DNA of 39,190 nucleotides from Planctomycetota bacterium (lineage in GTDB: Bacteria; Planctomycetota; Phycisphaerae; Phycisphaerales; SM1A02), in NCBI GenBank assembly GCA_016872915.1, contig VGYQ01000018.1, positions 1 to 39,190 on the forward strand. The letters run 5' to 3'. Shown here piece after piece: positions 16,716 through 37,385 of this stretch. Position 1 is the first letter of the stretch, and each line of letters starts with the position of its first letter. The position numbers and the translations under genes were made by a program. A model generated the notes under the pieces. The model had not been told where the DNA came from. It did not search any database and saw only the letters and a list, made by a program, of their open reading frames with translations.

Positions 16716-18641
16716 TCAGTTGCCGTCCTTGACCTCGTACTCCGCGTCGATCACATCACCCTTTCCGCCGCCGCTCTTGCTCGAGTCGTTGGATGTCGAT
16801 CCGGCCGCTGACTCGGTTCCGCCAGCAGACTTGGACGCTTCGTACGCAGCCTTTCCGAGTTCCGCAGCAGCTTCGTTGAGCGCCTTCATGGCGGCCTCGA
16901 TAGCCGGACGGTCGTCCGTCTTCACCTTCGACTCCAAGTTCGAAACGGCACTTTCAATGCTCGCTCGTCCTTCGGCGGTGATGCGCGATCCATGCTCTTC
17001 GAGACCCTTGCGCGTCGCGTAGATCAGCTGCTCCGCGCCATTTCGAATGTCGACGAGTTCGCGCCGTTGACGATCGCCAGCTGCGTTCTCCTCCGCCTCG
17101 CGGCGCATTCGGTCGACCTCCTCCTTGCTCAGACCGCTCGAGCCCGTGATGCGGATCTCCTGCTTCTTGCCGGTGGCCTTGTCGGTCGCGACGACATTCA
17201 TGATGCCGTTGGCATCGATGGAGAACTCCACCTCGATCTGCGGAACGCCTCGCGGCGCCGACGGAAGCCCTGTCAGGTCGAATCGCCCAAGACTGCGGTT
17301 GTCCGCTGCAAACTCGCGGTCGCCCTGCAGAACATGAATCGTCACGGACGACTGATTGTCCGCGGCAGTCGAGAACGTCTCCTTCTTGCTCGTCGGGATG
17401 GTGGTGTTGCGCTCGATCAGCTTGGTCATCACGCCACCGAGCGTCTCGACGCCCAGCGAAAGTGGGGTGACATCGAGCAGCAGTACGTCTTTCACCTCGC
17501 CCTGGAGCACGCCGCCTTGGATCGCGGCGCCGATGGCGACCACCTCGTCAGGGTTGATGCTGCGGTCGAGTTCCGTGGTCTTGAAGATGTCCTTTGCGAT
17601 CTCCTGAACCTTCGGAATGCGGATGGAACCGCCGACCATGACGACATCTTGAATGTCCTGAGCGGAAAGCTTGGCATCCTTGAGGCACGCTTCGCATGGC
17701 CCGCGAAGCCGCGTGAACAAATCCACACAGAGTTCCTCGAACTTTGCGCGGGTCACGGAGACCTGCAGGTGCTTTGGTCCATTCTGGTCTGCGGTGATGA
17801 AGGGCAGGTTCACTGTGGTTTCGAGTTGCGTGGAGAGTTCGATCTTCGCCTTCTCCGCTGCTTCCTTCAGCCGCTGCAATGCCATCGGATCCTTGCGGAC
17901 ATCGATGCCTTCTTTCTTGCGGAACTCCTCGCCGATGAAGTCGATCAGACGCTGATCGAAGTCGTCGCCACCGAGGTGACCGTCGCCGTTGCTGGCAAGC
18001 ACCTCGAAGACGCCATCGCCAACATCGAGGATCGAGATGTCGAACGTGCCGCCGCCGAGATCGAACACGGCAATGCGAGAATTCTTCTTCTTTTCGAGGC
18101 CGTAGGCAAGCGCGGCGGCCGTCGGTTCATTGATGATGCGTTCCACTTTCAGCCCGGCGATCTCACCGGCGTCCTTCGTGGCTTGACGCTGCGCGTCGTT
18201 GAAATAGGCGGGTACGGTGATGACGGCGCGCTCGACTTTTTCACCGAGGTACTCCTCGGCGACTTTCTTCAGATCGCGCAGAATCATGGCGGAGATCTCT
18301 GGTGGAGTGAATGCCTTGCCGCGGATGTCGACTTTCACGAGTTCGTCCTGCCCACCCGTGACCGTGTAGGGAACGCGCTTCTGTTCCGACTGCACTTCCG
18401 CGCCTCGGCGTCCCATGAAGCGCTTGATCGAGAACACGGTGTTGCGCGGGTTCGTGACTTGCTGATGCCGCGCTGGCTGACCGACGAGTTGCTCGCCCTT
18501 TTCGGTGAAGCCGATGACGGATGGTGTCGTGCGATTGCCTTGTTGATTGATCAGGACCTTTGGCTGTCCGCCCTCCATGATCGAGACAACGGAGTTGGTC
18601 GTGCCGAGGTCAATGCCGATGATCTTTGAGTTGGTTGTCAT
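16716..18641 (-). CDS. dnaK: Chaperone DnaK (Hsp70)
   Basis: This ATP-driven cytosolic chaperone binds unfolded segments of proteins together with DnaJ and GrpE, neither of which is encoded here. The 641-residue length is typical. Motifs are [12 protein letters not shown] (phosphate 1), [44 protein letters not shown] (phosphate 2), [14 protein letters not shown] (adenosine), the linker [13 protein letters not shown] and the C-terminal [10 protein letters not shown]. The start at 18641 is the Met right before the family N-terminus and has GAAGGA about 10 bases upstream. An apparent 70-residue upstream extension is leader sequence. A full-consensus sigma-54 promoter lies about 40 bases before the start, and no CIRCE element was found. 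Confidence 0.98.
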
Positions 18642-18688
18642 GTTGTTGGTTCCTTCTTTCCTGTCCGCTTTGGCTGCGGACCCTGTCG

Positions 18689-18712
18689 AGTAGCAAAGCC
18701 CGTGCCAATCCT
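18689..18712 (-). promoter_or_regulatory. Sigma-54 (-24/-12) promoter of dnaK
   Basis: On the minus strand the sequence contains TTGGCACG, four bases (GGCT) and TTGCT. This gives GG at -24 and GC at -12 with exactly 10 bases between them. It fits every defined position of the published consensus mrNrYTGGCACGNNNNTTGCWNNw, including the flanking A-G-x-A and the final T. The predicted start of transcription is near 18681, giving a leader of about 40 bases to the dnaK ATG. The site lies between genes, points toward dnaK, and no other such site was seen in the window. Confidence 0.8.
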
Positions 18713-18754
18713 GTTTCGGATCGGTCGGGGCGTATCCAAGCCTATTCTCGGGCG

Positions 18755-19810
18755 ATGCCCCAGACACTCGCGAGCGATGAGCGCGTGCAGATTGCCTCCG
18801 AGGCGATCTTGGCTGGGCTGCGTGCGCTGCAGGTGATTTTGCGCCATCCATCGGCTCGAGTGCCCATCAACAAGCCCGATGGATCGCCCGTCACGGCGGG
18901 GGATTTGGCGGTTCAAATGGCCGTCGCTTCTGTCCTTCGTCGCCGTGCTCCGCAGTGGATGCTCGTTGGCGAAGAGGGTGAGGGCAGCGTGCCGGGCGCA
19001 GAGGGTGCAGCACTCTTGGCGCGCGCTGTTGCGGCGGTTCGCGAATCGCTTGGAAGCGAGTCGCCCGCGGACCCAGCCGCCTTTCTTCAGGACCAAACGT
19101 GCTCTCCTGGCGAAACGTGGTGGACCGTTGACCCCATCGATGGAACCAAGGGTTTTCGCAGTGGGCGCCACTACGCGCTTTGTTTGGCGCTCGTGGAGCG
19201 CGGGGAAGCGACTGTTGGCGTTCTCAGTTGTCCAACGCTTGTGATCGGACGCGACCCGCTTGAGATTGGTGCAGACGATCAGATGGGAACGATCTATGTT
19301 GCTGCGAAGGGGCAGGGCGCATGGAAGTTCGCGCCACGCCCCCACGATTGCAGTTTGCCGAAAGCGCTGTTGCCCGTGGCTCGGAACACGCTGCGATCGG
19401 TCGGCGCGCCATGGCGCGTGTGTGATTCGATCGAGGGTGGTTCACGCGCGGAACGCATGCGTGGCATCATGAACCGAACATCGCTGCGATGGGAGTCCGT
19501 GTCGCTTGACAGTCAGTGCAAGTACGCGCTCGTCGCCGAAGGCGTGGCAGATTGCTTCATGCGCGTGCCAGGTTCTCGAGGCGCGGAAAAGGTCTGGGAT
19601 CATGCTCCTGGCGCGGTGGTTGCAAGCGAGGCGGGCGCGTGGGTTGGCGATCTTGTTGGTGCGCCACTGCGCATGGCCGGTGAGGCTCTCGATCAGAATG
19701 TGGGAACGCTCGCTTGTGACCGGTCGATCGTGACGCAGGTTCACGAGGCGGCGCGCGCAGCTCTCTCCGCCTCAGTGCCTGTACAGGCCAAGCACGGCAG
19801 TTCGTCGTGA
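18755..19810 (+). CDS. Hal2/CysQ-type 3'(2'),5'-bisphosphate nucleotidase (inositol monophosphatase superfamily)
   Basis: This 351-residue protein belongs to the Mg-dependent, lithium-sensitive phosphatase superfamily. The metal-site motifs are GEEGE (72-76), DPIDGTKGF (126-134) and [14 protein letters not shown] near 284. The exact DPIDGTKGF and the [11 protein letters not shown] segment (40-50) are closer to Hal2-type bisphosphate nucleotidases than to inositol monophosphatases, which suggests removal of the 3'-phosphate from PAP, a by-product of sulfate assimilation. I chose the ATG at 18755, since an upstream extension would cover the dnaK promoter. It is divergent from dnaK, and its last bases overlap the next gene (GTGA), suggesting translational coupling. 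Histidinol-phosphatase or inositol phosphatase activity remains possible. Confidence 0.85.
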
Positions 19811-35394: not shown

Positions 35395-35757
35395 TCACTC
35401 GGCAGTGGACGCATCTTCCTCATCGCGTGCAACTGCGCGGGAAGCGAGCCGCACGCAGCGCAGACAGATGAATGCCTCGGAGAACGCAGGGCTCTGGAAG
35501 ATTCGGTCGGTGCGCTCTTCGAGGCACATCGTGCACTTGGTAGGCGCCCCGTCCGGGCGGTCGCTCGCTTGGGCAGTGACCGTGAGTGCCCACGCGGCGC
35601 GCAGACAGTTGCCGCAGATGCAAGAGCCGTGGTGCCCCTCGACCATCGGACGGTCGAGCGTCCACGGTGTATGGCAGAAGTCGCAGAGGACATCCTCCAT
35701 TCGGACATTGTTCGGATCGGTGCCGTGACGGCGCACGCGCCGAGCATAGTTGCGCAT
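35395..35757 (-). CDS. Double ClpX-type zinc-ribbon protein
   Basis: This 120-residue protein holds two matching four-Cys modules. The first uses C25/C28 and C48/C51 (LCDFCHTPW ... ICGNCLRAAW); the second uses C75/C78 and C98/C101 (KCTMCLEER ... ICLRCVRLA). Both have 19 residues between pairs, and the modules are 50 residues apart. The pattern resembles the zinc domain of ClpX (C15/C18/C37/C40), but the AAA+ part is missing. I chose the Met at 35757; a start at 35700 is also possible. It lies upstream of trmB with a 4-base gap, and its start is 23 bases from the divergent kinase. A role as a protein- or RNA-binding adaptor is guesswork. Confidence 0.7.
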   Translation of the reverse strand: MRNYARRVRRHGTDPNNVRMEDVLCDFCHTPWTLDRPMVEGHHGSCICGNCLRAAWALTVTAQASDRPDGAPTKCTMCLEERTDRIFQSPAFSEAFICLRCVRLASRAVARDEEDASTAE

Positions 35758-35780
35758 CGGCTGCGCTAGTCTGTGCGGCG

Positions 35781-37385
35781 ATGTCACGAGGACCATCCCT
35801 CGCGCAGAAATGCCAGTTCGTCTTCGCGGCGGCTGCCATGCTGATTCTCGCTGGTGCGCTCGTTGTGCCGTGGCTTCGTCTGGAGTGGGTCGTGGATGAA
35901 AGCCAGCGCGAGACATCCCGTCAGTTGGCGGAAACCTGGATTCAGAATGGTTTTGCTCTGACGCGTACGGCGGGCATCCCGATCCCGATCCGAGTCGTGC
36001 AGGTGGATGAGATCGAGAGCAAGGGAGTCAGCGATCCCTTTGTCGAAACTGCGGAGCGGGCATTCTTTGCCAATCCGACACAGACGGAGGTCTTCGAGGC
36101 GGTGCAGTCCTCGCAGGGCGTGGTCTATCGGTACGCGCTCGCGCTGCGCGAGACGCAGTGGCGAGCGATCCAAGACCGACAGTTTGTGGACTTCGCTGCA
36201 CGCGCCTCCGATGTGGCGCTCGGAGATCCGCTTCGTGCTGTGCTGGTAATCGAACGCACCAGCCAGTTCGCCGCCGGACAGATCGCATCGAACCGTTGGT
36301 ACTTGGTTGTAAGCGGAGCCGTGGCTGTCGTGCTCGCGGTCCTCGTGTTCTGGTGGATTCTGACGCAACTGATCTTCTCACCTGTCCGTCGCTTGCGCGA
36401 CAGTATGGAGCGGGTGCGTCGCGGCGATCTGACGGTTCGCAGCAATCTGCGGACCGGCGACGAGTTGGAGGAGCTTTCGCGAGCATTCGATCAGATGCTC
36501 GACGAATTCGATCGCGTCCAGAACTCACTTCGTGCGATGAATGAGTCGCTCGATCTGAAGGTTGTCCAACTCTCCGAGGCGAATGTCGGTCTCTTCGAGT
36601 CCAACCGACTGAAGAGTGACTTCGTCGCGAGCGTGTCGCATGAACTTCGGACACCCCTCAATTCAATCATCGGGTTTGCGGAGCTGTTGGAGGAAATGGC
36701 GAGGAAGGACGCGGATGCTGATCCAAAGCGACAGCGATATGCAGCAAACATTCTGACGAGCGCTCGAATGCTCCTCGAGATGATCAATGAACTTCTGGAC
36801 ATGGCGAAGATTCAAGCGGGGCGCATGTCAGCAAGTGTGGTGACGTCGAGTGTCGCCGATCTGCTTGAGGGGCTTCAGGCGATCATGAAACCGCAGGCAA
36901 TGGCGAAGCTCATCGAACTGGAGTCGGAGGTGGCGTCCGACATCCCGTCGGTGGAAACGGATCCTGGAAAGTTGCAGCAGATTCTCTACAACTTCCTCTC
37001 CAATGCGATCAAGTTTTCGCCGCCAGGCAGCACCATTCGAATCGAGGCAGCGCAGACCACGGTTGAGTCGCGACCTGCCGTCCGTATCTCGGTTGTGGAT
37101 CAGGGCCCCGGTATCCCCTTCGATCTGCAGGAGACGGTATTCGAGAAGTTCCGCCAGATCGACGCGAGCCATACTCGCTCGCACGGAGGCACTGGGCTTG
37201 GTCTGGCGATCTGCCGTGAGCTTGCACAAATCCTTGGCTGCACAGTGGGACTGATTTCAGAGCCTGGCCGAGGCGCGACGTTTTTCGTGACGGTTCCCGT
37301 GCTCTACCGCGTGCGTGAGCGCAAGCCATTGCTGCCCACCGCGGCAGAGGAAGACGGGCGATCGCGTTCAGCGCCTACAGCCTGA
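35781..37385 (+). CDS. Sensor histidine kinase (HAMP-containing)
   Basis: This 534-residue membrane kinase has a first helix at about 11-34, an extracytoplasmic sensor of about 140 residues without known motif, a second helix at 173-199, and a HAMP domain at 200-255. The dimerisation and phospho-acceptor domain has His287 (SVSHELRTPLNSIIGFAELL). The ATP-binding domain has the N box (NFLSNAIKF, about 404-412), the G1 box (VVDQGPGIP) and the G2 box (HGGTGLGLAICREL). No response regulator is adjacent, so its partner is elsewhere. It is followed after 75 bases by a MacB-like permease, a context often seen for envelope-stress or antibiotic-sensing systems, although the kinase-permease link is inferred. 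Confidence 0.93.
   Translation: MSRGPSLAQKCQFVFAAAAMLILAGALVVPWLRLEWVVDESQRETSRQLAETWIQNGFALTRTAGIPIPIRVVQVDEIESKGVSDPFVETAERAFFANPTQTEVFEAVQSSQGVVYRYALALRETQWRAIQDRQFVDFAARASDVALGDPLRAVLVIERTSQFAAGQIASNRWYLVVSGAVAVVLAVLVFWWILTQLIFSPVRRLRDSMERVRRGDLTVRSNLRTGDELEELSRAFDQMLDEFDRVQNSLRAMNESLDLKVVQLSEANVGLFESNRLKSDFVASVSHELRTPLNSIIGFAELLEEMARKDADADPKRQRYAANILTSARMLLEMINELLDMAKIQAGRMSASVVTSSVADLLEGLQAIMKPQAMAKLIELESEVASDIPSVETDPGKLQQILYNFLSNAIKFSPPGSTIRIEAAQTTVESRPAVRISVVDQGPGIPFDLQETVFEKFRQIDASHTRSHGGTGLGLAICRELAQILGCTVGLISEPGRGATFFVTVPVLYRVRERKPLLPTAAEEDGRSRSAPTA

What the first reader, a model, noticed from the sequence alone, without database searches (positions are those of the whole stretch)
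18689..18712. Full-consensus sigma-54 promoter driving dnaK
The intergenic region upstream of dnaK holds TTGGCACG-N4-TTGCT with exact GG-N10-GC spacing, and the flanking bases also match the extended consensus. It points to dnaK and gives a leader of about 40 bases. In most bacteria dnaK is controlled by sigma-32, HrcA/CIRCE or sigma-A. A sigma-54 promoter would put the main Hsp70 under an enhancer-binding protein and an ATP-dependent signal. The match is seen directly; use in vivo is inferred.
Basis: partly seen in the sequence, partly recalled or inferred. Interest (0 to 1): 0.78.

Follow-up and report, generated by a model that had tools for sequence, protein, structure and literature searches.

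The report
Sigma-54 heat-shock switch at dnaK
In this group of planctomycete bacteria the main protein-repair gene, dnaK, appears to be switched on by an ATP-driven transcription system (sigma-54 with an activator protein and a DNA enhancer) that also sits in front of other heat-shock genes, where better-known bacteria use different controls.

Summary
TTGGCACG-GGCT-TTGCT lies on the minus strand (18708-18692), 51-67 nt before the dnaK start. Alone it proves little: the genome has 10 TGGCAC-N5-TTGC sites against 16 for the reversed pattern. Conservation settles it: 143 of 150 class genomes read have YGGYRY-N5-TTGC within 200 nt upstream of dnaK, in 24 of 24 families. RpoN is present; HrcA was found in 0 of 101 genomes. 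One sigma-54 activator (EBP) was found in 18 of 19 genomes of the genus, none in the other. A palindrome, CTGCCA-N3-TGGCAG, lies upstream with at most 2 mismatches in 115 of 142 dnaK regions, at helically phased distances. Palindrome plus promoter, searched class-wide, marks proteostasis genes in 96 of 103 hits examined (115 found). Best reading: a dedicated sigma-54/EBP heat-shock regulon. A 2025 survey already predicted sigma-54 promoters at planctomycete chaperones; I saw no activator, enhancer or regulon described. Expression is untested, and the window's own enhancer is weak.

The parts
18692..18708 (-). sigma-54 (-24/-12) promoter TTGGCACG-GGCT-TTGCT of dnaK
   Evidence: read directly; conserved upstream of dnaK in 143 of 150 genomes
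18642..18681 (-). predicted dnaK leader (start about 12 nt after the GC) with AAGGA at 18655-18651
   Evidence: inferred from promoter geometry; not mapped
16716..18641 (-). dnaK (Hsp70), 641 aa plus stop
   Evidence: translation and PF00012
18792..18806 (.). weak candidate enhancer, TTGCC-TCCGA-GGCGA, 99 nt upstream of the -24 element, inside the divergent gene; 4 mismatches is the best match of this upstream region to CTGCCA-N3-TGGCAG
   Evidence: similar sites (at most 2 mismatches to TTGCC-N5-GGCAA) in 13 of 16 genus genomes; above synonymous-codon expectation, P 0.0005 or 0.004, not corrected for relatedness
18755..19810 (+). divergent gene of the inositol monophosphatase family (PF00459); bounds the intergenic region

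Best explanation
The element is a genuine sigma-54 promoter of dnaK and part of a dedicated proteostasis (heat-shock) regulon. sigma-54 RNA polymerase waits at the -24/-12 element as a closed complex. An NtrC-type response regulator (REC, AAA+ with GAFTGA, Fis-type HTH; P0003, G000:C19:22327-23718), the only EBP found in the window's genome, binds a CTGCCA-N3-TGGCAG enhancer, mostly 65-140 bp upstream and on a preferred face of the helix, contacts the polymerase by looping and opens the promoter with ATP. In the window's genus the same device serves groEL; across the class it serves hsp20, clpC, htpX and dnaJ-like genes too. Shown: the DNA elements, their conservation and phasing, the EBP count and orthologs, no HrcA found, and the gene set behind the combined pattern. 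Inferred: that this EBP binds this palindrome, that heat or misfolding is the signal, and that an unlinked kinase phosphorylates the EBP.
For: Promoter at dnaK in 143 of 150 genomes with controls near zero. RpoN in 97 of 101 genomes, 81 of 81 of good quality. One EBP at E <= 1e-20 in 18 of 19 genus genomes; a match to it at E <= 1e-90 in 98 of 101 genomes, 81 of 81 of good quality, mostly 56-97% identical, other paralogs 38-44%. Receiver and HTH residues conserved in 38 aligned rows, a few of them duplicates. Enhancer with at most 2 mismatches in 115 of 142 dnaK upstreams; among 83 without a strict TGCC-N5-GGCA, 58 against 0.7 in shuffles; other spacers 0-4 of 126 against 57. Distances phased at about 10.7 bp. 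Blind search for enhancer plus promoter: 40 hits in 101 genomes, 39 before dnaK, groEL, hsp20, clpC or dnaJ-like genes, reversed pattern 2; class-wide 115 hits in 298 genomes, 96 of 103 examined before proteostasis genes, reversed pattern 3. Leaving out dnaK and groEL, from which the pattern was learnt, 38 of 45 examined class hits are still proteostasis genes. groEL of the genus: promoter in 16 of 16 readable upstreams, TGCC-N5-GGCA in 14 of 16. HrcA in 0 of 101; CIRCE-like sites at 1 of 150 dnaK.
Against: No expression, binding or start-site data. In the window's own genome neither dnaK nor groEL has a good enhancer, and the combined pattern gave 0 hits there and in 66 of 101 genomes and 199 of 298, since it demands exact cores and a limited spacing. 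The motif is not enriched genome-wide. groEL lacks a nearby promoter in 7 of 12 non-genus relatives looked at. No kinase gene adjoins the EBP in four neighbourhoods. In other families with several EBPs the choice of this EBP rests on orthology. In Rhodopirellula baltica, a more distant planctomycete, rpoN mRNA was reported not to change on heat shock (PMC2754498, passages), though EBP systems need not change sigma-54 level. Relatedness inflates the phasing and codon tests; with one distance per family and spacer the phasing p is 0.005.
Confidence: 0.8

Rival explanations
1. The promoter is real and EBP-driven, but the signal is not heat or misfolding; it is for example nutrient status or growth phase, and chaperones follow the state of growth.
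For: Many EBPs answer nutrient signals (established knowledge). The kinase and signal are unknown here.
Against: The gene set behind the pattern is chaperones and proteases: dnaK, groEL, hsp20, clpC, htpX, dnaJ-like, the usual heat-shock set.
Confidence: 0.15
2. dnaK is mainly transcribed from a housekeeping promoter, and the sigma-54 promoter is an accessory one, as in the tandem promoters of Chlamydia hrcA-grpE-dnaK.
For: dnaK is needed at all times; tandem sigma-66 and sigma-54 promoters are reported at hrcA-grpE in Chlamydia (passages of PMC7482065, and PMC8762339).
Against: No sigma-70-like site in 18600-18900, but the scan is strict (0.0 expected) and planctomycete housekeeping promoters may differ, so this is weak.
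Confidence: 0.25
3. The palindrome is the site of another regulator, not of this EBP.
For: Binding was not tested; families with several EBPs offer other candidates.
Against: In the genus only one EBP was found, its HTH is strongly conserved, and the palindrome sits at helically phased distances from sigma-54 promoters.
Confidence: 0.15
4. The match is a chance occurrence.
For: No genome-wide enrichment over the reversed pattern; most other hits in the genome lie inside long open frames.
Against: Conserved with exact spacing in 24 of 24 families while flanks differ; only 3 of 60 named loci outside the planctomycetes have a site at dnaK.
Confidence: 0.01

Closest known systems
Predicted sigma-54 promoters at chaperone COGs (GroEL, IbpA, GroES, GrpE, DnaJ, DnaK) in Planctomycetota and Bacteroidota, PLoS One 2025, PMC12316311 (passages seen)
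   Different: Enrichment by COG and class; the passages seen name no activator, enhancer or co-regulated gene set for these genes, and put the weight on Planctomycetia
[quoted passage not shown]
   Same: Hsp70 operon with a sigma-54 promoter and an NtrC-type activator in a related phylum
   Different: HrcA and CIRCE are present there; here HrcA was found in 0 of 101 genomes and the promoter lies directly at dnaK
Myxococcus xanthus HsfA/HsfB phosphorelay acting on lonD (PMC9109919, passage)
   Same: NtrC-like response regulator that activates a heat-shock gene
   Different: Kinase and regulator form one operon there; no kinase gene adjoins the EBP in the four neighbourhoods viewed here; the target set differs
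Bradyrhizobium groESL3 under NifA/sigma-54 (recalled, from no call)
   Same: A chaperonin operon under sigma-54
   Different: One of several groESL copies, tied to nitrogen fixation, not a general heat-shock regulon

Membership tests
sigma-54-dependent promoter | GG and GC exactly 10 bases apart in TGGCAC-N5-TTGC | tested here: met
   conserved
sigma-54-dependent promoter | sigma-54 gene in the genome | tested here: met
   (AID, CBD and DBD domains)
sigma-54-dependent promoter | enhancer-binding protein in the genome | tested here: met
sigma-54-dependent promoter | upstream enhancer | tested here: inconclusive
   met in most relatives; only a degenerate candidate in the window
sigma-54-dependent promoter | transcription lost without rpoN | not testable with these tools
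   needs an experiment
NtrC-type EBP (P0003) | receiver with acidic pair, Asp, Thr, Lys; AAA+ domain with GAFTGA; Fis-type HTH | tested here: met
   (the F of GAFTGA varies among orthologs)
HrcA/CIRCE heat-shock control | hrcA gene | tested here: not met
   0 of 101 genomes; 7 of 14 control genomes ring
HrcA/CIRCE heat-shock control | CIRCE upstream of dnaK or groEL | tested here: not met
   1 of 150 dnaK, 0 of 30 groEL at up to 4 mismatches
sigma-32 heat-shock control | sigma-32-type promoter at dnaK | tested here: not met
   mismatch spread like shuffles: at most 3 mismatches in 30 of 150 against 23
sigma-32 heat-shock control | rpoH gene | not tested
HsfA/HsfB-type phosphorelay | kinase gene in operon with the EBP | tested here: not met
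   none in four neighbourhoods viewed; other genomes not viewed

The most novel reading that the evidence does not exclude
In Phycisphaerae, and perhaps further back since Kuenenia has both elements at dnaK, the main heat-shock regulon is run not by sigma-32 or HrcA but by sigma-54 and one dedicated NtrC-type activator acting from a CTGCCA-N3-TGGCAG enhancer. In the window's genus this may be the main or only job left to sigma-54: a one-sigma, one-activator heat-shock switch.
Probability: 0.6. Interest if true: 0.87.

Novelty: new variant of a known kind. Interest (0 to 1): 0.77.

Why it matters
Bacterial heat-shock control is usually described as sigma-32, HrcA/CIRCE, HspR or sigma-A based (established knowledge). 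A class-wide regulon in which chaperones and proteases are opened by an ATP-driven activator would be another solution, with a tight off state and dependence on cellular energy. The work gives a regulator gene, a binding site and a target list, so the question becomes directly testable, and a genus with a single detected activator is a natural minimal case for linking one EBP to a whole sigma-54 regulon.

Tried and rejected
Motif counting alone was rejected as evidence (10 sites against 16 reversed). Exact 7-base inverted repeats near the genus promoters gave nothing consistent; the short palindrome appeared only on enumeration. HrcA, CIRCE, HAIR and sigma-32-type sites were tested and not found beyond chance. 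The sigma-70-like scan found none but has little power. A kinase beside the EBP was looked for in four neighbourhoods and not found. EBP orthology outside the class is unclear: best 46-48% in several Planctomycetia and Kuenenia, 37-45% elsewhere; 48 of the 80 named genomes were given to that call; the genome of L144, a Phycisphaerae record, gave only E 4e-80, and that of L147 a partial 47%. groEL: 30 of the 61 genomes were looked at; of 12 outside the genus 2 have TGGCAY-N5-TTGC, 3 a weaker form with C first, 7 none, so groEL membership varies or its promoter lies further upstream. The codon test used a consensus partly drawn from the same sequences; the core-only repeat (P 0.004) is less circular.

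Rows dropped: of 101 genomes, dnaK was not found in G056 and G084, and G010, G017, G029 and G042 are cut by contig ends; 95 were read. Of 89 genomes outside the order with a dnaK hit, 54 were read. Of the 150 upstreams, 8 have no promoter match or too little sequence for the enhancer count (142 used). Of 115 hits, 12 were not examined (G150, G278, G308, G296, G258, G317, G363, G307, G120, G275, G353, G147). Three of the four htpX assignments and the uvrA rest on reading the open frames; Pfam was run on one htpX. Shuffle maxima were printed for 6 of 20 sets.

Slips: one search read minus-strand loci in the wrong orientation, corrected; one search translated one base out of frame, the right frame was used. 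Structure prediction was available and not used.

Full report
The site. Minus strand 18708-18692 reads TTGGCACG-GGCT-TTGCT, GG and GC are exactly 10 bases apart, and dnaK begins at 18641. The expected start is near 18681, with a leader of about 40 nt. The divergent gene on the plus strand starts at 18755 and belongs to PF00459.

Is it more than chance? By itself, barely. In the own genome TGGCAC-N5-TTGC occurs 10 times against 16 for the reversed pattern. Of 26 TGGCAY-N5-TTGC sites (control 17), the clearly promoter-positioned ones are dnaK and groEL, with L302 uncertain; the others lie in long open frames. The case rests on conservation.

Conservation. dnaK was matched in 99 of 101 relatives and 108 of 120 class genomes, and the upstream DNA of 150 genomes was read: 96 of the order and 54 others of the class. 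TGGYRY-N5-TTGC within 200 nt is in 91 of 96 and 40 of 54; with any first base, 94 of 96 and 49 of 54. For TGGYRY the reverse strand and other spacers give 0, the stretch 200-400 nt upstream gives 1 in each set, and shuffles average 0.13 and 0.14. By family, 24 of 24 have the form with T or C first and 23 of 24 the form with T; in the window's genus it is 17 of 17 with readable upstream. The flanks differ widely. Among 79 named loci with readable upstream (350 nt), the site is in 9 of 9 Phycisphaerae-like loci, 7 of 9 other planctomycete loci, Kuenenia, and 3 of the other 60, namely two Gemmatimonadetes and one Lentisphaeria (grouping is my reading of record titles).

The machinery. RpoN is in the own genome and in 97 of 101 genomes, 81 of 81 of good quality, with its three domains. 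At E <= 1e-20 the EBP family PF00158 has one member in 18 of 19 genomes of the genus; none was found in G006, 80% complete. Genomes of other families have 4-10. The genus EBP (P0003) has REC, AAA+ with GAFTGA and a Fis-type HTH. A match at E <= 1e-90 is in 98 of 101 genomes, mostly 56-97% identical over most of the length, while other paralogs are 38-44%. Receiver and HTH residues are conserved in 38 aligned rows, some duplicated. HrcA was found in 0 of 101. CIRCE, HAIR and sigma-32-type sites are absent or near chance at dnaK.

The enhancer. Enumerating gapped 4-mer palindromes upstream of the promoter in 126 non-genus genomes gave one dominant answer, GCCA-N3-TGGC (59) and TGCC-N5-GGCA (57), against 8 at most in the six shuffle sets printed. 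TGCC and GGCA at other spacers occur in 0-4. With the consensus CTGCCA-N3-TGGCAG, 115 of 142 dnaK upstreams have at most 2 mismatches; of 83 without a strict TGCC-N5-GGCA, 58 do, against 0.7 in shuffles. Distances to the -24 element are phased with a period near 10.7 bp (R 0.38, p about 7e-8 for 115 sites; 104 distinct, p about 2e-7). The period was chosen after looking and relatedness is not removed; with one distance per family and spacer sequence p is 0.005. Phasing is what a looping activator at short range should show (recalled).

The regulon. In the genus, groEL copy A has the promoter in 16 of 16 readable upstreams, with TGCC-N5-GGCA 72-116 nt further up in 14 of 16. A search blind to gene identity, for TGCC-N5-GGCA, 58-88 nt and TGGCAY-N5-TTGC, gave 40 hits in 35 of 101 genomes against 2 for the reversed pattern: dnaK 16, groEL 15, hsp20 4, clpC 2, dnaJ-like 2, other 1 (four of them by the gene positions). 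In 298 class genomes it gave 115 hits in 99 genomes against 3 reversed. I identified the downstream gene for 103: dnaK 52, hsp20 22, clpC 11, groEL 6, htpX 4, dnaJ-like 1, other 7 (77, 17 or by position, 9 by the dnaK positions). The two searches share 18 hits. As the pattern was learnt from dnaK and groEL, the independent part is the rest: 38 of 45 examined class hits are hsp20, clpC, htpX or dnaJ-like. Pfam confirms one representative each of M48 protease, ClpC, Hsp20, DnaJ and GroEL. The seven others include a uvrA and several that look like chance.

Limits in the window. The window's dnaK has a full promoter but only a degenerate enhancer candidate (TTGCC-TCCGA-GGCGA, 18792-18806), inside the divergent coding region. 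Comparable sites lie at -88 to -118 in 13 of 16 genus genomes and exceed a synonymous-codon simulation (P 0.0005, partly circular; 0.004 with the core only; relatedness uncorrected). The own groEL has no clear enhancer, and the combined pattern has no hit in the own genome. The genus may use a drifted site, or need less specificity with a single EBP (inference).

Mechanism. Most likely sigma-54 polymerase is poised at dnaK and an NtrC-type EBP bound upstream opens it with ATP. The intact receiver predicts phosphorylation, but no kinase gene adjoins the EBP in the four neighbourhoods viewed, so the signal is unknown; the gene set argues for protein-folding stress. Sense of proportion: in Rhodopirellula baltica heat induces dnaK, groEL, clpB and hsp20 mRNA without change of rpoN mRNA (PMC2754498, passages), which neither supports nor excludes an EBP switch.

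What was known. A 2025 PSSM survey (PMC12316311; passages, no supplements; [quoted passage not shown] Studholme and Dixon 2004 on Pirellula is cited there; I have not seen it. Chlamydia has a tandem sigma-54 promoter at hrcA-grpE (PMC7482065, PMC8762339; passages). Myxococcus HsfA is an NtrC-like activator of lonD (PMC9109919; passage). My ten library searches listed no other title or abstract describing such a circuit; I saw listings only for most papers, and the library lacks most subscription journals.

Verdict. The finding is confirmed and its reading supported. It is a new variant of a known kind: an ordinary sigma-54/EBP device used as a class-wide heat-shock regulon. Use in vivo remains to be shown.

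Noticed in passing
window 18743-18757 (+): TATTCT ends 6 nt before the ATG of the divergent PF00459 gene; in the genus it is TATTCT in 15 of 16 and TATCCT in one, 6-7 nt before the first ATG in 15 of 16, which suggests a -10 box and a leaderless or nearly leaderless mRNA.
   Followed up: partly
L208 (Kuenenia) and L184 (a Gemmatimonadetes MAG), upstream of dnaK: Both carry a sigma-54-like site and a TGCC-N5-GGCAG palindrome upstream of it, so the arrangement may be older than the class or have moved; the Gemmatimonadetes genome has no close match to the EBP (best 41%).
   Followed up: partly
L152, L153, L154, L160, L163, L174, L202 (Planctomycetia or Pirellulaceae), upstream of dnaK: sigma-54-like sites at dnaK without the CTGCC-N5-GGCA palindrome; another activator or enhancer may act there.
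   Followed up: no
window 35586-37382 (+): HAMP-HisKA-HATPase histidine kinase, about 17 kb from dnaK and on a different contig from the EBP; whether it has a partner regulator was not checked.
   Followed up: no
G000:C12:36674-38062, G000:C12:34555-35934, G000:C56:6684-8063: Three groEL-type genes in the own genome; only the first was looked at for a sigma-54 promoter.
   Followed up: no
L139 (CAMBWI010000013.1): A public MAG titled Singulisphaera sp. GP187 has a contig of the same length and dnaK position as G002, a member of the window's genus, so the name looks wrong for this lineage.
   Followed up: no
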